Shown here piece after piece: positions 14,308-36,026 of a DNA stretch of 64,000 bases. How positions within the stretch are numbered: the first letter of the stretch is position 1; each line of letters begins with the position of its first letter. The notes beneath the pieces are model-generated. The model worked only from the letters and a program-made list of their open reading frames with translations, was not told the origin of the DNA and made no database searches. Origin of the DNA: Cutaneotrichosporon cavernicola. Taxonomy: Eukaryota > Basidiomycota > Tremellomycetes > Trichosporonales > Trichosporonaceae. The stretch covers positions 2,356,001 to 2,420,000 of the forward strand of contig NC_083393.1 in NCBI RefSeq assembly GCF_030864355.1. Direction: 5' to 3'. The position numbers and the translations under genes are program-made.

Positions 14308-15039
14308 TTACTGGAGAGAGGCAAGCACACTGAGAGCGCCGATGACAAGACACGCGCCGGCGACAGTGCGCTGGGTTGCACCGCTCTTGGGCGTGGGGGT
14401 GGCAGATGCGGTGCTCTTCGACGCGCTCGACGATGTCACGGTGAGCCAGACGACGGTGGTGGGAACTGCTGGGGCGGGAGGGGGCGCACCAGGCCCGGTG
14501 TACGTGGGGAGGATGCCGCCAGCCGACGACGACATGCTAGACGAAGAGGCGACGCTAGACGAAGAGGCGACGCTAGACGAGCTGGGAGCCGCCGAACTGG
14601 GACGCACCGAGCTGGGAGACTCGGAGGGGATTGGCTCCGAACTGGCACTTGAGGGCGTGCTCTGGGGGTCACTCGACGAGGACGAGGGAGTCTGAGTGGC
14701 CGGTGGCTCGGATGTGGACGAGGTGGTGGCAGTTACAGAGGGCTCTGGGCTGGGGTAGTCCCTCTTGTCGGCGCAGTTGAAACTAGCACCCGGAGCACCG
14801 TTGGCGGTGAGACACGCGGCGAACTGCTCGTTGCTGGCGTCCGTGAGACACACGGTCCAGCCGCACTGGTTCTCCGTGCCGCCATGCCCGATGCTGGCGC
14901 CCGAGCAGCACGCGGCGGTCAGGGCATTAGGCGCGGCAATACACGCGCGGAGGTTGTATTCGGAAGGAATGTGGTAGGCCGGCGGCGCGACGGTCGACGC
15001 CGCGTCGAAGGCTGGGTAGGTTGCACAATCGTAGGACAT
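14308..15039 (-). CDS. Cys-rich tail-anchored paralogue A (Ser-rich stalk)
   Basis: 243 residues, one exon. N-terminal domain of about 90 residues with eight Cys (5, 33, 44, 45, 59, 64, 76, 89) in the pattern C1-x27-C2-x10-C3C4-x13-C5-GWxx-C6-x11-C7-x12-C8. It includes ACIAAPNALTAACC and CGWTVC. A stalk of about 125 residues rich in Ser, Thr and Pro follows (contains the triplicated SVASSSS-like unit), then a hydrophobic C-terminus (GACLVIGALSVLASL). The shape suggests a cell-surface protein held by a GPI anchor or C-terminal membrane segment. But no N-terminal signal peptide is visible from this ATG (MSYDCATYPAF), which is odd. First of four same-strand paralogues. Family not recognised; CFEM domains also have eight Cys but different spacing. 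Confidence 0.75.
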   Translation of the reverse strand: MSYDCATYPAFDAASTVAPPAYHIPSEYNLRACIAAPNALTAACCSGASIGHGGTENQCGWTVCLTDASNEQFAACLTANGAPGASFNCADKRDYPSPEPSVTATTSSTSEPPATQTPSSSSSDPQSTPSSASSEPIPSESPSSVRPSSAAPSSSSVASSSSVASSSSMSSSAGGILPTYTGPGAPPPAPAVPTTVVWLTVTSSSASKSTASATPTPKSGATQRTVAGACLVIGALSVLASLQ

Positions 15040-15489
15040 GGTGGAGTGTGGAGCATCAGTCGCATCAGTAGTGGGCCAGTGGGTTTTAGTTCTATCAACC
15101 TGTGAGCTTGTTGGAGGTTCGTGCGCGATTTGGCATCAAGAGTGAAAACGGGGTTGACGGGTTGGACCAATGTGGGCCTTGTCAGCGATGGGGGAGGATG
15201 CTGGGGAGATGAGGAGAGGGATGGTGTCCGAACTGGGCGGGGCACGGGGTGCACGGTGGTTGCACGCACAAAGGCGCGGCAATTGGCCTGGCTCTCCATC
15301 CCATCAGTAAGTTTGGTAGTGTCCGAGCTGGTTAACTGCGATTCTATTGGTACACTGATTGGATCTTGTTTACTTTTGCATGGCGGTTCATTATTCAAAT
15401 CGGAGCTGAAGTTCAGTAGGCCTCTCAAGCTGCTACTCACTATCCATACTTCAGGGCCCGAGGTGTCGGCGTTCTAATCTTTCGTCGCA
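15040..15489. other. Intergenic between paralogues A and B
   Basis: Promoter side of paralogue A and 3' side of paralogue B. No distinct element recognised. Confidence 0.45.
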
Positions 15490-16128
15490 CTACAACGCAG
15501 CAAGGACGGATGTTGCGAAAGCGACGGTGACAGCAAGGACAGTAACTCGCGCTACCAGTTTACCCGAGCTGCTGGGCGCTGCCGATCTCGCGCCAGCACT
15601 CGCGCAGTTGAAGGAGTACTTTCGCCGGCGACGCGTGAGGTTGACGAACTCGCCGGGCAGGAATCCTTGATCGTCGTCGTCGTCATCGCCCACACTACGC
15701 CGTCCGTCGCGGATTGCAAGTCGACGGAAACAAGACTCGATGGCGTTGTCGCTCATTGTCCCAATACATGCCTCCCAACCGCAGATATAATCGCGGGCCC
15801 CGTTGCAACACTCCATCATGTACCAGTTGGGGTAACCAATACACGCCCGACCGGGGCGAGGCTGGACCTGTGGGGGCCAGAATGCCTGAGGAGCACCGTT
15901 GGCTTCCCCAGGGCCTGGGAACGAACCGCAGCCAACGAAGCTAGCCCCGACGGCAACGGCGGACGGAATACAATCAACTGTGTTTAAGTTTTTAAAAGGA
16001 GGGATGGTGAGGTTGGAGGGGGCGGCTACCGCCACAATGGACGATGAGGTCGTCGCAGATAGGGGGAAGGTGGTGTTGAGTGTCGCGACAGTAGCAGCGG
16101 CGACGATCAGAGCTGAAATGGGAGCCAT
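15490..16128 (-). CDS. Cys-rich paralogue B with N-terminal hydrophobic leader
   Basis: 212 residues, one exon. Begins MAPISALIVAAATVATLN, a plausible signal peptide and the only clear one in the family. Core: ACIGYPNWYMMECC, then CGWEAC and, after x11, C7, with C8 in FNC. Spacing C2-x10-C3C4 and C5-x4-C6-x11-C7 matches paralogues A and D. It has an extra N-terminal Cys, a run of six Asp after C7, a basic RRRRK stretch, and a hydrophobic tail (VTVLAVTVAFATSVLAAL). Cell-surface location is inferred; function unknown. Confidence 0.75.
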   Translation of the reverse strand: MAPISALIVAAATVATLNTTFPLSATTSSSIVAVAAPSNLTIPPFKNLNTVDCIPSAVAVGASFVGCGSFPGPGEANGAPQAFWPPQVQPRPGRACIGYPNWYMMECCNGARDYICGWEACIGTMSDNAIESCFRRLAIRDGRRSVGDDDDDDQGFLPGEFVNLTRRRRKYSFNCASAGARSAAPSSSGKLVARVTVLAVTVAFATSVLAAL

Positions 16129-16646
16129 GGTGATGATGCTGGGGAGGATGGTTTGTTGGGACGGATGGTTGATTCGAAATGTAGAGAAAAGTGATGGGAG
16201 ACGTGAAGGAAACTACGACAAGATGAAGCTCGTATGTATTGAACAAACACTACACAAAATCTTCATGGGCATTCGCACCAAGGTCTCTGGCCACAGTCTT
16301 GCATAACAGGCTGTTCCCACATCGCCAAACTCAATCGCCCGTCATGCCATTCATCGAACCTCCCAAGCCTTCTACTGTACAAGCAGCTTCTCTACACAAT
16401 AAACCATTTCAGCGACAGTATAAATCACGAGGGCCAATTCATAATCAACAATCTACGTTGTCTTACCTCAACGTGTCTCTATAAAAGCTTACAGGCTGGC
16501 CAATTCATAATCAACAGTCTATGTTGTCTTACGTGCCAAGCCTCAACGCGCCTCCACACAGTAAAAGGTGGCAATTCATAATCAACTGTCTCTGATGTCT
16601 ACGATCTAAGTGCCAAGTCTAAGCGACCCGTTGATTCTATACAAGT
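16129..16646. repeat. Three diverged direct repeats downstream of paralogue C
   Basis: Units starting CAATTCATAATCAAC occur at about 16435, 16500 and 16572, roughly 65-72 bp apart, two of them continuing into GTTGTCTTAC. A segment at about 16480-16500 (AAGCTTACAGGCTGGCC) resembles the 3' coding end of paralogue C at 16642-16660 (AAGTTTACAGGCCGGCC). This suggests that the repeats arose by tandem duplication of that gene end. Confidence 0.6.
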
Positions 16647-17288
16647 TTACAGGCCGGCCGCAAGAATGGTCAAGGCCGCGGCAAAGACAGAACTGGCGAA
16701 CACGACCCGGTGTGAAAACTTGGGGCGAGCACCAGACGGTCTCACACAGGAAAACTCGAACGCGTCGCGGCGCACGAGGTTTGCGCGCCGAAAAATGCGC
16801 TTGCCATGCCACATACAGTCGTCGTACTTGTCCTCGCCGTCGCCGTTGGGCTTCCAGCTGCCATCGTCATAGCCCCCCTCATCCTTGTCGTTCGGCTTCC
16901 AACTTCCGTCATCTCCGTCCCCTTCCTTCCCGTTTCCAGATTCCTCGTCTTCCCAGTCATTCCCGTTGTCATCGTCGTCGTCGTCGTCGTCATCGCTGTT
17001 TGCCGCCAGTTTCTTGAAGCACTTCTTCAGCTGTTTGTCGCTCAGAGTCGTGATACACACGTCCCACCCTTCGTCGTGGGAGAGCGAGCTGTCCTCCGAG
17101 CGCTTGCGCTTGTCCGACCCATTCTCGCAGCAACCGGCCATGAGCCAGTTAGGGTAGACGATGCACGCTCGCATCCCGTCCTCGAGGTCCTCAGTTGCCA
17201 TGTAGAGCGGCCAGTGGGCCTGTGGGACCGAGGTCGCCGAGTCGACCGATTCGTAAAAGGAGGTGTTGGTGATGTGGACGAGGGACAT
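16647..17288 (-). CDS. Cys-rich paralogue C (lost two cysteines, acidic insert)
   Basis: 213 residues from MSLVHITNTSFYES at 17288; the frame is open upstream to 17489 over a tandem repeat, which I take as leader. Core: ACIVYPNWLMAGCC, EGWDVC, x11, C7, and C8 in FEFSC. Compared with A, B and D it lacks both C1 and the C5 before GW (Glu instead). A basic/acidic insert (KRKRSEDSS) separates C4 from GW, and a long Asp/Gly/Lys-rich region with repeated GSWKPN units follows C7. It ends in a hydrophobic tail (VVFASSVFAAALTILAAGL). No signal peptide. Function unknown. Confidence 0.72.
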   Translation of the reverse strand: MSLVHITNTSFYESVDSATSVPQAHWPLYMATEDLEDGMRACIVYPNWLMAGCCENGSDKRKRSEDSSLSHDEGWDVCITTLSDKQLKKCFKKLAANSDDDDDDDDDNGNDWEDEESGNGKEGDGDDGSWKPNDKDEGGYDDGSWKPNGDGEDKYDDCMWHGKRIFRRANLVRRDAFEFSCVRPSGARPKFSHRVVFASSVFAAALTILAAGL

Positions 17289-18001
17289 GGTGGTAGTTGT
17301 GCTTGGGTTTGGTTGTCGAGAAGGTAGGTAGAGCTGTGTTGGTTCGCTCGTTACTCGTGAACAAGGTAGGTAGAACTGTTTTGGTTCGTTCGTTACTCGT
17401 GAACAAGGTTCGGGTTCGAGGTGAGAGATGTGGAGTGAAGATGGAACTTGAGTAGGGTTGGGCTTATATCTCTGACTGATGCTGGGCATGCCTGCAAACG
17501 ACCTGCGCGCTGTTTTGCACGCGGCGTGAATGAATTCATGAATCTAAGATGGGTGGCTGAGTTGAGACAGTGTCGCAAAGTGGGATTGAGTCTAGGGCCG
17601 CCGTCCCACGCCACAATGCAACTGAGTAAAACCATACCCAACACATCATTCAGCCAGCGTCCTCTGATGGAGAATGGTCCGGAGGGTCCATTGGCTATTC
17701 GGCTCTCATCTCCCTGCAGAGACCATGACAGCCGTCATATCAGAATGAGCCTCCGAGACCATGGCAGCCGTCATATCAGAGTGAGCCTCCCGGAAGTCTA
17801 GGAAGTCAGCCTCGACATGACTGAAACGCCCCTGGACTGGCCTTTGAATACTGCACCTTTGACGCACACCTCAGTACTACTGATACAAGTGGTTGTGTTC
17901 GTCGACTACTAATGATCTAAGCGGTTGTGTTCGTCGAGGTACACGACCTAGCTGTTCGAGTATAACACGCAAAGAATACCATGCAGAACAGAAGCACATT
18001 C
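17289..18001. repeat. Upstream region of paralogue C with tandem duplications
   Basis: Two copies of a roughly 46-bp unit (GGTAGGTAGA...TTACTCGTGAACAA) lie at about 17322-17410. Two copies of a 35-bp unit (GAGACCATG...GAGCCTCC) lie at about 17720-17790. Two copies of GGTTGTGTTCGTCGA lie near 17891 and 17921. No gene seen apart from these. Confidence 0.65.
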
Positions 18002-18128
18002 GTCTTTGTGGTGTAGTGGTTATCATACTCTCTTAGGGAGCTGTCTGATACGCTGACGGATCTAATCTCGTCAGCGAAGAGGACGTACCTCTTGGGAGTG
18101 GCCCCGCGTTCGAATCGCGGCAAGGACC
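18002..18128 (+). tRNA. tRNA-Pro (AGG) with 54-nt intron
   Basis: Acceptor GTCTTTG pairs with CAAGGAC; D arm GTGTAGTGGTTATCAT; anticodon stem CTCTC/GGGAG; loop T-T-AGG-G-T; T arm CCGCG-TTCGAAT-CGCGG. Intron 18039-18092 at the canonical position after base 37. The loop sequence matches eukaryotic tRNA-Pro. A T-run that could end transcription comes only about 30 nt later. Confidence 0.9.
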
Positions 18129-18536
18129 AAGCAGGATTAGAAACCTGATTAGGATACGTTTTTGGAGTGAATACGATTGGTCTAACGACCAATTGCATGT
18201 CCGAGTTTGAATGTGGACGGTGAAACGCCTTCTTCCGCGTGCCTGTGTGGCGCCACGGCGCGTGGCGCATTCCCTGCGCCATGTTACACGTGTATCGAGA
18301 GATCCCAAACTCTTCAAGACAACCAGGCACCCCCATCTCTAGCCGCTTGCTATCAACCATCCTACCATCGTGGACGGAACTGCGATTACAGGGCATGACA
18401 TTCAAAGTGTGACTATACTACAACTCAAAAGTTTATGCTCCCGCCGTGCCGCTGTCGCATCGCAATGGCGGGTCAACTCTCATGACTGCAGTCGTCAGCA
18501 AGCCCGCAACGTGAGAATGGGTGGATGGTAACTTAC
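18129..18536. other. Intergenic, nothing recognised
   Basis: Between tRNA-Pro and the 3' end of paralogue D. No feature supported. Confidence 0.45.
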
Positions 18537-18908
18537 CTATGACACGGCAAGGACGCCAAGGGCCACCAACGCGACGACGACCCCCGCTCGCCGTGCGCGC
18601 GCACCGCTCGTCACGCACTTCTGGGTCGGGGAGACACCGTTGGCTGCGAGACCGTTGCGCTCGATACACGACTCCCAAGCTGTCCGGTTTGAGACGACGC
18701 ACGCCGCCCACCCGCACCAGTCGTAGGCCTGGCCCTCGAGCTGCCCGCAGCACAGCGATCCCAGCGTGTTCGGCGAGCTATAGCATGCGAAGGAGCCCGA
18801 GGGGATAGTGCCGTTGTACCCGGGGCCAACGTCAGCCTTGGCGCCGGGCGTGGTGGGGTATGGGACGCCATTGCACCCGTCGACGGTGTTGCTGCCTAAC
18901 GAGAGCAT
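18537..18908 (-). CDS. Cys-rich paralogue D (short form)
   Basis: 123 residues, one exon. Eight Cys (12, 42, 53, 54, 65, 70, 81, 98) in C1-x29-C2-x10-C3C4-x10-C5-GWxx-C6-x10-C7-x16-C8; visible blocks are ACYSSPNTLGSLCC and CGWAAC. The hydrophobic tail (AGVVVALVALGVLAV) follows C8 almost directly, so this is the minimal form of the family: Cys domain plus tail, without stalk. No signal peptide. The stop TAG overlaps a GTAAGT that looks like a splice donor, so an alternative C-terminus is possible. Confidence 0.72.
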   Translation of the reverse strand: MLSLGSNTVDGCNGVPYPTTPGAKADVGPGYNGTIPSGSFACYSSPNTLGSLCCGQLEGQAYDWCGWAACVVSNRTAWESCIERNGLAANGVSPTQKCVTSGARARRAGVVVALVALGVLAVS

Positions 18909-23543: not shown

Positions 23544-24488
23544 TTAAGCCCTCTGGAGGTGGAAGTCCTGCTGGAGCTCGTGGACCATGCGGTTCTCCAG
23601 GCCAGCGGGCGCCTGGTAGTCCTTGGGGATGGGCTTAAAGTCGACAATGAGGTTGTCCTTGACAGCAAAGACAGAGTCGTCCTTGAGATAGTCGGATTGG
23701 CGGTCAAAGATCTGGGTGACCAGAGTGCGGTGGCCAGGGGCCTCGATCCAGAAGTGGATGTGAGCGGGACGGTACGGGTGGCGGTCGAGCAGCTTGAGGA
23801 GCTTGCCCGCAGAGAAGTCGTACGGGATCGGGTAGGGGGTGGGCTTGAGGCAGACCGTGTCGTACCGCCCGTTCTCGTCGGTGCGGAAGCGCCCGCGGCA
23901 GTGGTACTCGGGCTTCTCGGGGGTCTGGGCGTCGTACAGCCCGTCGGGCGCGTCGTGCCAGATGTCGACGAGGGCGTTGGGCAAGGGCTTGCCGTCGGCG
24001 TCATGGATGGTGCCGAACAAGTGGGTGTAGGGGGCACCCTCCTCGGCTTGGCGGATGATGGTGGTGCCGTTCTCCTGCACGGGAACGCCAGCACGGTAGA
24101 ATGGGCCGAGGATGGCCGAGAAAGTCGCGTCCTCGTTGTCAGGGAGACCCTTGCGCTGGGAACGCGTCTGGTCGAGCGTGTTGACAAGCGACTCGATGCC
24201 GAGGATGTCGGTGACAAGGACAACCTCGTTACGCTTGTCGCTCGACACCTGGCCGGCCTCGACGAGAAGGTTGCACGCAGCAAGCCACTCCTCGGTCGTA
24301 ACGTCCGCCTCGATAAGGAACTCGTGGACTTTGCGGATGAGGATTGGCATCGCCTCCTTGACGCGGGGCGAGGCCTTGTCACCGGTGGCCTTGATGCTGT
24401 GTGTCAGCGCCAGTCAGGCGTGTGGGCCGAAAAAAACAAGGACGACTTACACAAGATCGGTGTAGGCAGAGAAGTCAAAGTTGGACAT
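23544..24488 (-). CDS. Intradiol ring-cleavage dioxygenase (catechol or hydroxyquinol 1,2-dioxygenase)
   Basis: Two exons (24488-24451, 24396-23544), 296 residues. N-terminal helical dimerisation domain (VKEAMPILIRKVHEFL), then the Fe(III) catalytic domain. Ligands fit the CatA pattern: Tyr in GLYDAQ, Tyr in TPYPIPYDF, two His in YRPAHIHFW, with the adjacent Arg. It opens catechol to cis,cis-muconate, or hydroxyquinol to maleylacetate; sequence alone does not separate these. It takes the product of the phenol and salicylate hydroxylases nearby. Transcribed divergently from an ERT1/AcuK-like regulator across 1.46 kb. Confidence 0.93.
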
Positions 24489-27850: not shown

Positions 27851-31276
<3,426 letters not shown>

Positions 31277-31731
31277 GCGACTGTGTAAAGTGGTATTGGA
31301 ATCGGCTTGTATCGCATAGGAGTAGGATAGTTGGCAGTTTTGGCAGGATATGAACGCATGACTCTACTTGGTCGTGGATCGATAGCAGACCGGCGGAAGG
31401 TGGCTGTAGCCGTATTGACTGGGTGACAAGGTGATACATTGTATTAGCGAACACAAATATAGGCTACTATATATCACGGGCTGTGAACAGTCCTCGTTAC
31501 TGAGGAACGATCCGTCGTAGTCAAGGAACGAGTTGTCGTTGCTTGCTACGAGGTTCGACACTAGCTCACCGACCATCGTGAGTGAGTGACGAACCTCGTA
31601 GTTAAAGTTAAGAGGTACCGTGGTATTCGGTACGCCACTACAACGGGCGACCAGGTTCCTCTTCGCAGAGCTCACGCAGGCAGCTCCGCAGATCCAAGCA
31701 CCAAAAGCAGCCTGCAAAAGAATATTCCATG
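31277..31731. other. Intergenic, nothing recognised
   Basis: 3' region of phenol hydroxylase up to tRNA-Asp. A few GTAACGAGGTTCG-like short repeats near 31495-31610; no feature supported. Confidence 0.4.
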
Positions 31732-31819
31732 CTCTCTGTCGGAGAATTGAACTCCGGTCTCCCGCGGTCACGACTGATGTGATGACAAGCGAGCATACTA
31801 GCCACTATACGAACAGAGA
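31732..31819 (-). tRNA. tRNA-Asp (GUC) with 16-nt intron
   Basis: From 31819: acceptor TCTCTGT pairs with ACAGAGA, discriminator G; D arm GTATAGTGGCTAGTAT; anticodon stem CTCGC/GCGGG; loop T-T-GTC-A-C; T arm CGGAG-TTCAATT-CTCCG. The 16-nt intron (TCACATCAGTCGTGAC) lies after base 37. TTTT follows 10 nt downstream. Confidence 0.94.
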
Positions 31820-32662
31820 CGCGGCTGATTTCTGTAACTTTAGCTCCGCAAAAGGCCCCAGCCCCCAGCCCCCAAAGCCCAGGTAAGAACTGACACCATG
31901 TCCAAAATGTGACCAGGTCGCCGTGGAGTAAGGGCACTGATAACTGGAGACATGGTAGACGGTCGTTGGTCCGGAGAGAAGAGGATGCCATATTGAGTCT
32001 GGCCTGCAGTTAGCCTGCAGTTGGGCGACGCGACTCGCAGCTGGACAAGCTGAGAAGCTGACAAGCCGGCTTTAGGCGCAGTGGGACTTGCACCAACCGC
32101 GCCTCGATGGCGACCAAACAACAGCAACGTATAAACAGCCTGATTTTGGAGGCCGGTTAGACGCCGATGCCGACCGAGGTTCGGTCTCTATAGCGAGAGT
32201 GCAACCTCGATCTCAAGAATTGCTTTGTTCTCCTTTGCGGGCCGTCTTGATGCGCGGCGCGAGACGGACGACGCGGTGCCCGCAGGAACAGGCGCATGTA
32301 GCGTAGCAGTGGGCGTTGGTTCTAAGGGCATGTAGCGTAGCAGTGGGCTATGTTGTAAGGGACATGTTCCGGGAACGGATTGTTGACGTCCGGAGACCGA
32401 AAAGGCACAGCGGCCCAGAGGAATGCGTCAGTAGGCGGCAACCCGGCTCCAGCGATATAGCTGCTTGGAACGACCAACTGCTGCAAGACTACATAGACGA
32501 GGTGGAAACTGTCGTTCATACCACCCTCTCTCCTGTCACCGACACCAACTCCACCGACAAGCGAGCTCGACGTTACCGCCTTTCTCTACAACCACTCCCC
32601 AACCACTCCACAACCACTCCACAACCACTACCCAACCCTACCCACCGCATCCTCTTCCAGAC
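31820..32662. promoter_or_regulatory. Upstream region of 4-hydroxybenzoate hydroxylase with palindrome
   Basis: GACCGAGGTTCGGTC at 32172-32186 is a perfect inverted repeat (CCG-N5-CGG core), about 480 bp upstream of the ATG. Two copies of GCATGTAGCGTAGCAGTGGG occur at about 32293 and 32328. ACCACTCCACA-type repeats lie in the leader at 32590-32630. Function inferred only. Confidence 0.4.
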
Positions 32663-33841
32663 ATGAAGACCACCGTCGGCATCATTGGCGCGGGCCCAGC
32701 TGGCCTGCTACTCGCACGTCTGCTGCTCAAGGCGGGCATCGAGAGCGTCGTCATCGAGACCAAGGACCGCGAGTACGTCGAACACCGGCAGCGTGCGGGT
32801 ATTCTTGAGCAGGGCTCGGTCGACACGCTGCGCGAGTGCGGCGCAGGCGAGCGGATGGACAAGGAGGGCATCCCGCACGACGGCATTGAGCTTCTCTTTG
32901 ACGAAGTGAGGTATCCGATCCACTTCCCCTCTCTTACCGGTGGGCGGCGCGTCATGATCTACGCCCAGACCGAGGTGTGCAAGGACTTGATTGCTCTGCA
33001 GCTCAAGGAGGGCGGCCCGCTCTTTTTCGAGACTGCCGTCAAGGAAGTTCGCGACGCCAAGAGCTCCAAGCCCAAGATTGTGTTCCGCCGCAAGGACGCG
33101 ACCGAGGACGAGGTGCTCGAGTGCGACTACGTCGTCGGGTGCGACGGCTACTGGGGTGTCGCTCGCCAGGCCATCCCCAAGGAACTCGTGCGCGAGTACG
33201 AGAAGAACTACCCCTTCGCGTGGCTCGGTATCATGGCCGATGTACCTCCGTCCAACGAGGAGCTCATCTATGCTCGCCATGACCGCGGATTCACTCTCCT
33301 CTCGATGCGCTCGCCCACTGTGTCGCGCAACTACATCCAAGTGCCGGCCGGTACCGACATTAAGGAGTGGAGCGACGACGCGATCTGGGACGAGATCGAG
33401 GCCCGCACCAAGACCAACGACGGATGGAAGGTCCAGCGCGGACCCATCTTCCAGAAGAGCGTCACGCCAATGCGCTCGTACGTCCACGAGCCTATGCAGT
33501 ACGGCAACCTCTTCCTGGCCGGCGACGCCGCCCACATTGTGCCGCCCACCGGAGCCAAGGGCCTCAACCTCGCTGTCGGCGACGTCGTCACCTTTGCCCG
33601 CGCCATCAAGCACAAGGTCGACACGGGCTCGGATGATCTCCTCCAGGGATACTCTGACCAATGCCTCCGTCGCGTGTGGCAGGCCGAGCGGTTTTCGTAC
33701 GACATGACCAACCTCCTCCACACCAGCCCAGACGAGACGCCGTTTGAGCACAAGCTCCAGACCGCCAAGCTCTGGCGCATGACATCGCAGCCCTCGGCCG
33801 AGACCGACCTCGCGATGGGCTACACTGGCTTCCCGTTGTAG
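32663..33841 (+). CDS. 4-Hydroxybenzoate 3-monooxygenase, bacterial PobA type
   Basis: 392 residues, no intron, the length of bacterial PobA (394). FAD fold VGIIGAGPAGLLLARLLLKAG; GILEQGSVDTLRECG; CDYVVGCDGYWGV; LFLAGDAAHIVPPTGAKGLN. Substrate residues of Pseudomonas PHBH are kept: Tyr201 (LIYARH), Ser212 and Arg214 (LLSMRS), Tyr222 (SRNYIQV) and Tyr385 (MGYTGFP). So it very likely turns 4-hydroxybenzoate into protocatechuate with NAD(P)H. Intron-free and bacterial in every block, it is a candidate for ancient transfer from bacteria, although phenol hydroxylase next to it is also intron-free. The ATG at 32663 starts exactly at the FAD fold. Confidence 0.93.
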   Translation: MKTTVGIIGAGPAGLLLARLLLKAGIESVVIETKDREYVEHRQRAGILEQGSVDTLRECGAGERMDKEGIPHDGIELLFDEVRYPIHFPSLTGGRRVMIYAQTEVCKDLIALQLKEGGPLFFETAVKEVRDAKSSKPKIVFRRKDATEDEVLECDYVVGCDGYWGVARQAIPKELVREYEKNYPFAWLGIMADVPPSNEELIYARHDRGFTLLSMRSPTVSRNYIQVPAGTDIKEWSDDAIWDEIEARTKTNDGWKVQRGPIFQKSVTPMRSYVHEPMQYGNLFLAGDAAHIVPPTGAKGLNLAVGDVVTFARAIKHKVDTGSDDLLQGYSDQCLRRVWQAERFSYDMTNLLHTSPDETPFEHKLQTAKLWRMTSQPSAETDLAMGYTGFPL

Positions 33842-34571
33842 GCAGGGAGAGTGAGAGTGAGAATGAGGGACTAAGGAGGAAATGACAGGGCAACACGGCT
33901 GTGCGGATCGTAGTAGTGTCACCATTGTATTGCATGTTTTGTTTGACATTGCTGCTGTTGTTTGTGCATACTCAGACTAACTAGAACCGCGGCTCGTGCA
34001 TCGGCTGACTCTCTCTGCGTGTCACTGTGCTGCAGAAACACGGCTGGTCACCCATGTAGCCCACCATAGATCGCCCGGCCCCAGCACCCGAAACGGAGAG
34101 ACCTGGCCCAGACGCCTGCGGAACCGCTCTACAGCTCTACATCCTGTCCCCGATTCCATCCACAGCGTCGCCTTCGTCGTTGTGTCGTCCCACTGTTTTC
34201 GTCGGGGTTAGCACATGCAGAATCAACTCGATTTCATGACAAGCTGAGAAGATTCCTCTGATGACGGCCCGGACTTTCGGACGTGAGGTGAAATGATCGG
34301 CAATCCAGTGTCGGTTATCGGACAGTCACGGGAACGCCACACCATCAGCTGATTGATCTAAACTCACCTGACGCCACAGCCGCAGTTGACCAGAGCCTGC
34401 CTGCCCACTTCCATCGCACGACCGAGGCGTGCCCGACCGAACGTCGCCAGTCCAATCGTGCATGGCCCGCTCTGCTCTGTGCACCCCCGAGTGCAAACGC
34501 TAATTCCATGATCCTGCATACAATCCAAGCACCCAATTCTACAAGAGATACTCCTATGCTAGTCTTACAGC
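33842..34571. other. Convergent intergenic region, nothing recognised
   Basis: Between the 3' ends of the 4-hydroxybenzoate and salicylate hydroxylases. No gene, RNA or repeat supported. Confidence 0.45.
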
Positions 34572-36026
34572 CTACTCATCCTTGGCCTTGGCAAAAAGGG
34601 CGTCGTACTGCTGGGCTGCGTCCTTCTCAACGTCGTAGAGGAAGAGCCTGTCGTGGATATCGCGCGAGATCATCTTGTCGGGGTTGGGTCCGCCGTTCTT
34701 GACATCGCGGAAGGCCTGGTTGCGCGCCTCCTTGTCGTTGGTGTGGAGACCCTTCGAGTTGGCAGCGGCTGTGAGGACGGCCCAGTCGGTACGGGGCTTG
34801 CGGAGGTTCTGGTAGGTGAGGAGCGCCTGGTGGATATCGTCCTTGCTCTTGACCTTTGCGAGAATCACACCGAGAGCGGCGGCGTCCTCGACGGCCATGG
34901 CGGCGCCCTGCGCAATGTGGGGGAGAGTTGGGTGGCAGGCGTCGCCGACGAGGGCAGACTTGCCGTCGATCCAGTGGGGGAGGGGCTGGTGGGCGCGGAG
35001 CTTCCACTCAAGGACCTCGCCCTCGGGGACAAGGTTGAGGAGCTTCTGCACACGCGGGCAGAAGTCGTGGAACGTCTTGAGCATCTCGTCCTTGGATCCA
35101 ACGGCGGTCCAGGTGTCCGCCTCGACAAAGTGACGGTCGGGCTGAGTAGTGGACATGTTGAACAGGTCGCCACGCTCAATAGGGTAAGCAATGATGTGAC
35201 GCTTCTCGCCAATCCACCGGTAGCTCTGCGTGCCAGTGAAGAAGGGGACGAGTTCGGGGTCCTCGTTGATGGCGGAGCGGCGGACCATGATACGGTACGC
35301 GGCCTGTCCAGTGTCCTCGACCTCGTCGACCTCGCCCTTGCGCGCCATCATGGCCGCGCGGGCCTTGGACTTGATGCCGTCCGCGCAGATGATGACGTCG
35401 GCATCGATCCACTCGGTCTCACCACCCTCCGCAAGCCTGCCAGTCACAGCGTCCGAGGCACCACCGCCGCTGGTGACGGTACTGTCACCGTTCGCTCCAC
35501 GCGGCCGGTGCTTGACCTGGAAGCGCGTGTTGTCAAAGTCGTACTCGGTGATAAAGTTGCCCAAGTGGAAAGTGACAACACCCGAGTTCTTGGCTCCCTC
35601 CAAAAGGCACTTCTGGAGAGCGCTACGGTGAACGGTGGTGAACGGGTAGCCAAAGTTCTGCTCCATGTAGTTGGAGTAGTCGGCAGTGGTGAGGACCTCG
35701 TCGGTCTCGCAGTCGAGCACATTGGCGTGGGTGATGACAATACCCTCGTCAGTGCAGATGCTGAGGACGCCCCAGCTGTCGAGGACGCGAGCGAGGTTGG
35801 GGGGAATGTTGATTCCCGCTCCGACTTCGCCGATCGCGGGAGCGGCCTCCCAGACGTGAATGTCCTTGAAGCCCTGCTTGGCGCATGCGAGAGCCGCACC
35901 GGCACCGCCCATGCTGACTGTTAGCGATGCGATCCATAAAAAAACACCTGTTCCCACGAGAACTCACCCAGCACCAATGATGTGGATGCGAAGGTCGGGA
36001 AGATGAGGAGTCATTGTCGCCGTCAT
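34572..36026 (-). CDS. Salicylate 1-hydroxylase-like FAD monooxygenase
   Basis: Two exons; the FAD fold is formed across the splice (DLRIHIIGAG joined to MGGAGAALACAKQG, intron near 35928-35977). About 465 residues. Seen: VGAGINIPPNLARVLDSWG, DVIICADGIKSKAR and the FAD site ALVGDACHPTLPHIAQGAAM. It matches the NahG-like group that decarboxylates and hydroxylates salicylate to catechol. The adjacent aldehyde dehydrogenase and the ring-cleavage gene support that substrate; a 3- or 6-hydroxybenzoate-type substrate remains possible. Start: ATG at 36026 or the in-frame ATG at 36014. Confidence 0.87.

What the first reader, a model, noticed from the sequence alone, without database searches (positions are those of the whole stretch)
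14308..18908. Undescribed-looking tandem family of Cys-rich, C-tail-hydrophobic proteins
Four same-strand genes (14308-15039, 15490-16128, 16647-17288, 18537-18908) share C2-x10-C3C4-x(n)-GWxxC6-x(10-11)-C7 and a P-N after C2 in all four (AC[IY]xxPN), plus a hydrophobic C-terminal tail. The part between C7/C8 and the tail varies completely: Ser-rich stalk (A), Asp run with RRRRK (B), acidic GSWKPN repeats (C), nothing (D). This is the pattern of a tandem array with a fixed extracellular-type module and fast-evolving linkers, as in surface or effector families. I do not recognise the module; CFEM spacing differs.
Basis: partly seen in the sequence, partly recalled or inferred. Interest (0 to 1): 0.8.

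Follow-up and report, generated by a model that had tools for sequence, protein, structure and literature searches.

The report
Yeast surface-protein family lacking signal peptides
Four neighbouring yeast genes belong to an uncatalogued family of small, cysteine-rich proteins that end in what looks like a membrane-anchor signal but seem to lack the usual front-end address tag for secretion, so how they would reach the cell surface is an open and easily tested question.

Summary
Genes A-D (14308-18908, minus strand) share one Cys module plus a hydrophobic C-terminus. They are 4 of at least 9 paralogues in this genome (Cutaneotrichosporon cavernicola). Leave-one-out HMMs recover all eight groups (E 7e-9 to 6e-25). 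No Pfam family and no PDB sequence relative was found. HIS471, a close relative, has A-D under four consecutive locus tags.

All nine tails carry S-[GSA]-A before a hydrophobic end, resembling the tail of this genome's GH72 protein, and N-x-T sequons are enriched (p=0.0003). Yet 27 of 29 family proteins lack a hydrophobic N-terminus. CACC precedes the ATG in 5 of 9, against 19 of 2007 window ATGs. A scan for a spliced signal-peptide exon found none convincing, but does not exclude one.

Best reading: lineage-specific GPI-type surface modules on variable stalks, possibly entering the ER by the C-terminal signal alone. Topology, anchoring and function are inferred.

The parts
14308..15039 (-). 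Gene A, 243 aa; orthologues HIS471_0108600 (P0025) and C. spelunceum 0114020 (P0026)
   Evidence: ORF; family HMM E 6e-14 with A group left out; orthologues
14773..15027 (-). A: eight-Cys module (residues 5-89)
   Evidence: alignment; Cys list
14386..14772 (-). A: Ser/Pro/Thr-rich stalk
   Evidence: contains 18-nt and 15-nt tandem repeats
14311..14385 (-). A: GPI-like tail, SGATQR + hydrophobic end
15490..16128 (-). Gene B, 212 aa; orthologue HIS471_0108610 (P0019)
   Evidence: HMM E 4e-17 with B group left out
15931..16128 (-). B: N-terminal extension; hydrophobic in B and P0019 (KD12 2.39 and 2.34), not in P0020, P0021, P0023, P0027
15730..15930 (-). B: Cys module (residues 67-133; C8 at residue 175 lies after the linker)
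15586..15729 (-). B: acidic/basic linker with conserved N-x-T sequon
15493..15585 (-). B: GPI-like tail (the S[GSA]A match is SAA; the place aligned with SGAR reads AGAR)
16647..17288 (-). Gene C, 213 aa; orthologue HIS471_0108620 (P0024)
   Evidence: HMM E 4e-16 with C group left out
17019..17165 (-). C: Cys module (residues 42-90); C1 and C5 both absent
16737..17018 (-). C: Asp-rich linker with two GSWKPN copies
16650..16736 (-). C: GPI-like tail (SGARPKFSHR + hydrophobic end)
18537..18908 (-). Gene D, 123 aa; orthologue HIS471_0108630 (P0001)
   Evidence: HMM E 1.5e-11 with D group left out
18615..18875 (-). D: eight-Cys module (residues 12-98); modelled beta-alpha-beta-beta-alpha-beta core at residues 40-100
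18540..18608 (-). D: GPI-like tail (SGARARR + hydrophobic end)
18486..18536 (-). Putative 51-nt intron directly after the stop codon of D (TAG|gtaagt...tgcag); same exon end in G1 (TAG|gtgagt) and G2 (CAG|gtgagt)
   Evidence: the HIS002 protein P0002, read by hand, runs across this junction

Best explanation
A-D are members of a family of small surface glycoproteins, so far seen only in Cutaneotrichosporon and unnamed contigs. Shown here: a shared eight-Cys module, a tandem array kept in a close relative, a conserved C-terminal S-[GSA]-A + hydrophobic tail, and start codons that leave no signal peptide in nearly all members. Inferred: the module folds as a disulfide-bonded beta-alpha-beta-beta-alpha-beta (ferredoxin-like, perhaps KP6-like) domain in the ER lumen and is N-glycosylated. 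The tail is cut and replaced by a GPI anchor, and the variable linker is a stalk that sets distance and charge at the cell surface or wall. With no N-terminal signal peptide, the hydrophobic tail would be the leading candidate for the ER-targeting signal, so the whole chain would have to be translocated after synthesis (SND-, Sec62- or GET-type targeting). My step probabilities: real family 0.97; disulfide-bonded luminal module 0.75; GPI anchoring 0.65; C-tail-only ER entry 0.3.
For: Family: own-genome hits with A, B, D, E, G1 and H as queries and leave-one-out HMMs. Tail: S[GSA]A within residues -40 to -15 in 28 of 29 family proteins, and in 9 of 9 paralogues against 2.0 expected (0 of 20000 shuffles reach 9). 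A GPI-like-tail rule, made after seeing the family, picks exactly A-D from 606 window ORFs. This genome's GH72 locus, of a class recalled as GPI-anchored, has a tail SDAR + spacer + hydrophobic end and, by eye, a clear signal peptide at its start. Lumen: N-x-T sequons 12 vs 3.96 expected, p=0.0003; all sequons 16 vs 9.1, p=0.013. Sequons stay in register while the middle residue varies: LN[MTVIQ]TIPL in 5 of 5 H proteins, N[SA]T in 5 of 5 E proteins, N[LVN]T in 6 of 6 B proteins. Eight ectodomain Cys in 6 of 9 paralogues; C1 and C5 are both absent in C and its orthologue. No signal peptide: N-terminal 40 aa max KD12 at most 1.35 in 27 of 29; CACC-ATG in 5 of 9 vs 19 of 2007 window ATGs; no SP-like upstream exon over the threshold in 7 of 9. 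Fold: two AlphaFold models give the same element order. Targeting precedent: a review passage says the yeast SND pathway was found in studies of GPI-anchored proteins, and its reference list carries a title on human SND2 and GPI proteins with low-hydrophobic attachment signals (PMC8998515, passages).
Confidence: 0.4

Rival explanations
1. Ordinary GPI-anchored surface proteins whose signal peptide sits on an unannotated upstream exon or arises by alternative start or splicing; nothing unusual about ER entry.
For: Each of the nine genes has at least one AG between the last in-frame stop and the ATG, so splicing into the frame cannot be excluded. C and H give SP-like candidates and B one just under the threshold. 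B and P0019 carry a hydrophobic N-terminus. Annotated models of this family can be wrong (P0002, P0005).
Against: No SP-like exon over the threshold in 7 of 9 genes within the scanned range, and control frames do as well for C. CACC-ATG context P about 9e-9. The HIS genomes were annotated by BRAKER with RNA-seq hints (PMC10568926, passages), and the HIS471 models of A-D begin at the corresponding ATGs. Starts lie at about the same place before the module in the orthologues.
Confidence: 0.27
2. Tail-anchored proteins: the Cys module faces the cytosol (perhaps binding metal) and the C-terminal segment is a permanent membrane anchor in the ER, mitochondria or peroxisomes.
For: A hydrophobic C-terminus in 29 of 29 and no hydrophobic N-terminus in 27 of 29 is the textbook tail-anchor layout. 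Basic residues usually precede the tail.
Against: N-x-T enrichment and in-register sequons; Ser/Thr-rich stalk in A; mostly even Cys numbers; S-[GSA]-A motif before the tail, which tail anchors are not known to need; resemblance to the GH72 tail.
Confidence: 0.2
3. The module is a KP6-type antimicrobial or killer domain displayed on the cell surface for antagonism against other microbes.
Confidence: 0.08

Closest known systems
KP6 killer protein and KP6-like fungal effectors
   Same: Small Cys-rich fungal alpha/beta module; KP6 is the top but tied structural match for the D model
   Different: No sequence similarity detected; recalled as secreted proteins with signal peptides, whereas this family has a hydrophobic C-terminal tail and mostly no signal peptide
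CFEM-domain proteins (PF05730)
   Same: Eight-Cys fungal module, often with a stalk and GPI tail (recalled)
   Different: No Pfam match here; Cys spacing C-x10-CC...CGWxxC differs; CFEM matches lie elsewhere in the same genome
GH72 protein of the same genome (class recalled as GPI-anchored)
   Same: Tail KSDAR + spacer + hydrophobic end, like KSGARR of the family
   Different: Starts, by eye, with a clear signal peptide; its triplet is SDA, outside the S[GSA]A rule; enzyme
Tail-anchored membrane proteins (GET clients)
   Same: Hydrophobic segment at the C-terminus, no signal peptide in most members
   Different: N-domain cytosolic by definition; here sequons and Cys point to the lumen

Membership tests
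GPI-anchored surface protein | C-terminal signal: small omega triplet, spacer, hydrophobic end | tested here: met
   28 of 29 by the S[GSA]A rule (P0027 fails); 9 of 9 paralogues, shuffle mean 2.0; a post-hoc rule selects only A-D among 606 window ORFs. No trained GPI predictor at hand
GPI-anchored surface protein | N-terminal ER signal peptide | tested here: not met
   27 of 29 without hydrophobic N-terminus, B and P0019 with one; no convincing upstream exon, though C, H and B gave candidates; start context. Hydropathy rule only; no trained predictor at hand
GPI-anchored surface protein | Covalent GPI anchor on the mature protein | not testable with these tools
   needs PI-PLC or mass spectrometry
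Tail-anchored protein | C-terminal hydrophobic segment and no signal peptide | tested here: met
   29 of 29 tails KD12 at least 2.0; 27 of 29 without hydrophobic N-terminus
Tail-anchored protein | N-domain in the cytosol | tested here: inconclusive
   sequon enrichment argues against; flanking basic residues argue for
KP6-like fold | Disulfide-rich alpha/beta sandwich | tested here: inconclusive
CFEM (PF05730) | Profile match | tested here: not met
   no match at E<=5 for A-D nor at E<=1 in 21 members

The most novel reading that the evidence does not exclude
A whole fungal protein family reaches the cell surface as N-glycosylated, disulfide-bonded GPI proteins using only its C-terminal GPI-type signal for ER targeting: signal-peptide-free, tail-first translocation of an N-terminal domain.
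Probability: 0.25. Interest if true: 0.85.

Novelty: new variant of a known kind. Interest (0 to 1): 0.5.

Why it matters
If the sequences mean what they say, most of nine genes in one yeast carry a GPI-type tail and luminal hallmarks without an N-terminal signal peptide. Either a class of surface proteins enters the ER by its C-terminal signal alone, which would extend the known targeting rules, or clean-looking gene models hide their leaders, which matters for secretome annotation. Either way most of the family would probably be missed by screens that ask for a signal peptide first. The module also has no Pfam model and may have a KP6-like fold.

Tried and rejected
Pfam on A-D and on 21 members: nothing above chance. 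PDB by sequence: only chance hits (the one row, a '26.7 kDa salivary protein' at E 5.3, was not pursued). Foldseek in PDB and BFVD: no match at E<=0.001; the rows shown are mostly generic small alpha/beta folds (EF-G, PII-like, RRM). KP6 was absent from the 50 rows shown for the E model. A tandem-specific origin of A-D was not supported: the core tree is mostly unresolved (7 of 26 inner branches starred, 16 open, long branches). CFEM rejected by profile. The fifth hit (L005, C8:479420, E 0.018) and the last (L011, E 0.136) did not show the Cys pattern and were dropped. From the homologue lists I left P0002 and P0005 (D models with altered 3' ends and no tail) and P0006-P0008, P0018 and P0022 (own or identical sequences) out of the 29 counted; P0013 was cut to its conserved ATG only. 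Literature: no title or abstract start listed names this family; one search returned nothing; passages only were seen of PMC9632046, PMC8998515, PMC13211469 and PMC10568926. GH72 and CFEM loci were fetched for controls; only GH72 was informative. tRNA and Rfam scans of the window were empty.
Full report
What is there. The four ORFs are real and as described. The window is C1:2356001-2420000 of a 20.2-Mb, 8-contig genome. Its D gene is identical over the first 96 residues to C. cavernicola HIS002_0108910 (P0002), and its G1 gene is identical to HIS002_0411970 (P0008), so the species is Cutaneotrichosporon cavernicola. Size and contig number are like those published for that species, 20.20-20.24 Mb in 7-8 contigs (PMC10568926, passages).

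Family. Searches of the same genome with A, B, D, E, G1 and H give at least nine members; C, F and G2 were not used as queries. They are A-D on C1; E at C8:573226; F at C7:6859-7137; the neighbouring pair G1 and G2 at C4:3095109 and C4:3096210; and H at C7:44347. Pairwise E-values are 2.0e-17 (B-E), 4.0e-11 (B-C), 2.7e-8 (A-E) and 1.3e-4 (D-G2). With each group left out in turn, an HMM of the others finds it at E 6e-14 (A), 4e-17 (B), 4e-16 (C), 1.5e-11 (D), 6e-25 (E), 2e-18 (F), 1.5e-11 (G1) and 7e-9 (H); the best other window ORF of 607 has E 0.004-0.1. C2-x10-C3C4 is invariant in all nine; C5-x4-C6 is kept in eight (C lacks C5).

Orthologues. HIS471 has A, B, C and D as locus tags 0108600, 0108610, 0108620 and 0108630. 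C. spelunceum has A and D (0114020, 0114050); C. oleaginosum has a B-like and an E-like protein. All named hits are Cutaneotrichosporon. These searches reach only relatives that share short words and were capped in the number scored, so a wider range is not excluded.

Ends of the protein. All 29 counted proteins have a hydrophobic C-terminus (KD12 at least 2.0); 27 of 29 have no hydrophobic N-terminus (max KD12 at most 1.35), the exceptions being B and its HIS471 orthologue. Four other B orthologues (P0020, P0021, P0023, P0027) lack it. CACC precedes the ATG in 5 of 9 paralogues (A, B, C, E, G1), against 19 of 2007 ATGs of any frame in the window, three of which are A-C themselves; D has GACC, G2 CATC, H GCCA, F TTTC. 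A scan for canonical introns (35-350 nt, within 450-1400 nt upstream) joining an upstream ATG exon to the frame found no leader over the hydropathy threshold of 2.0 in A, B, D, E, F, G1 or G2, though B had one at 1.91; C had 2 (control frames 3) and H had 4 (control frames 0). The C and H candidates start 347-637 nt upstream and would put long extra stretches before the conserved start seen in the H orthologues. So a hidden leader is unlikely but not excluded. On rechecking I gave the B candidate more weight: the best explanation went from 0.5 to 0.4, the missed-exon rival from 0.22 to 0.27 and the novel case from 0.28 to 0.25.

Tail. At least one S-[GSA]-A lies within residues -40 to -15 in 28 of 29 (P0027 is the exception) and in 9 of 9 paralogues against 2.0 expected (0 of 20000 shuffles). 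In the B group the match is SAA, while the place aligned with SGAR reads AGAR, GGER or AGSR. The rule 'uncharged hydrophobic end plus S[GSA]A' picks A, B, C and D and nothing else among 606 window ORFs; the rule was made after seeing the family, so this shows specificity and is not an independent test. The GH72 locus of the same genome has a reading frame ending ...KSDARATLSLPPTAAIVIGVLGLVAGAVVV and, by eye and without an assembled gene model, a first exon with a clear signal peptide. That GH72 enzymes are GPI-anchored and that omega sites are small residues is recalled knowledge.

Lumen hallmarks. In the nine paralogues, N-x-T sequons number 12 against 3.96 in shuffles (p=0.0003) and all sequons 16 against 9.1 (p=0.013); the reversed motif [ST]xN numbers 13 and TxN 7. 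Sequons are kept in register within the D, E, G1, H and B groups (one each at least); group A has none (0 of 3) but a Ser/Thr-rich stalk. Six of nine paralogues have exactly eight ectodomain Cys; B and H have nine and C seven. Gene C and its orthologue both lack C1 and C5, which suggests a C1-C5 disulfide, although P0009 has lost C1 alone.

Evolution of linkers. Between paralogues linkers are unalignable. Between orthologues identity is lower in the linker than in the core in 6 of 7 pairs with a linker (A with P0025 and P0026, B with P0019, P0020 and P0027, C with P0024), and not in B vs P0023. Low-complexity repeats in A and C make slippage a sufficient cause.

How it most likely works. A disulfide-stapled module is made from its own ATG, targeted by its C-terminal hydrophobic signal, taken into the ER, glycosylated, GPI-anchored and shown at the surface on a stalk of member-specific length and charge. 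Shown: family, tail, absence of a leader as far as DNA can show. Inferred: ER entry, anchor, disulfides, display, function. A review says that the SND pathway was identified in yeast studies of GPI-anchored protein targeting (PMC8998515, passages), which makes non-SRP targeting conceivable; full translocation without a signal peptide has no precedent that I know of or met in the listings.

Verdict. New family, new variant of a known kind (GPI-type surface proteins).

Noticed in passing
window 18486-18536 (-); L017:1903 and L017:2950: A putative intron begins directly after the stop codon in D and G1 (TAG|gtaagt, TAG|gtgagt), while G2 has CAG|gtgagt at the corresponding place, so its frame would run on into the next exon.
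   Followed up: partly
P0002 (HIS002 model of D): Read by hand, the HIS002 protein of D implies an extra 32-nt 'intron' that removes the hydrophobic tail by frameshift; probably a misprediction, as the HIS471 protein P0001 keeps the tail.
   Followed up: partly
window 17321-17409, 17719-17790, 17875-17937: Three two-copy tandem repeats (42, 36 and 32 nt) in the region upstream of gene C, the first 33 nt before its ATG.
   Followed up: no
G000 C6:2132844-2135300 (L035, L037): One 903-codon open frame with eight listed CFEM matches joined by Pro/Ser and Gly/Thr repeat linkers.
   Followed up: no
window 18010-18130: Looks by eye like a tRNA gene with an intron (gttcgaatc motif), but ARAGORN and Rfam did not call it.
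   Followed up: partly
window 29138-35957 and 23544-24350: FAD-dependent aromatic hydroxylase-like ORFs and an intradiol-dioxygenase-like ORF: probably an aromatic-compound degradation region (names from recall, not searched).
   Followed up: no
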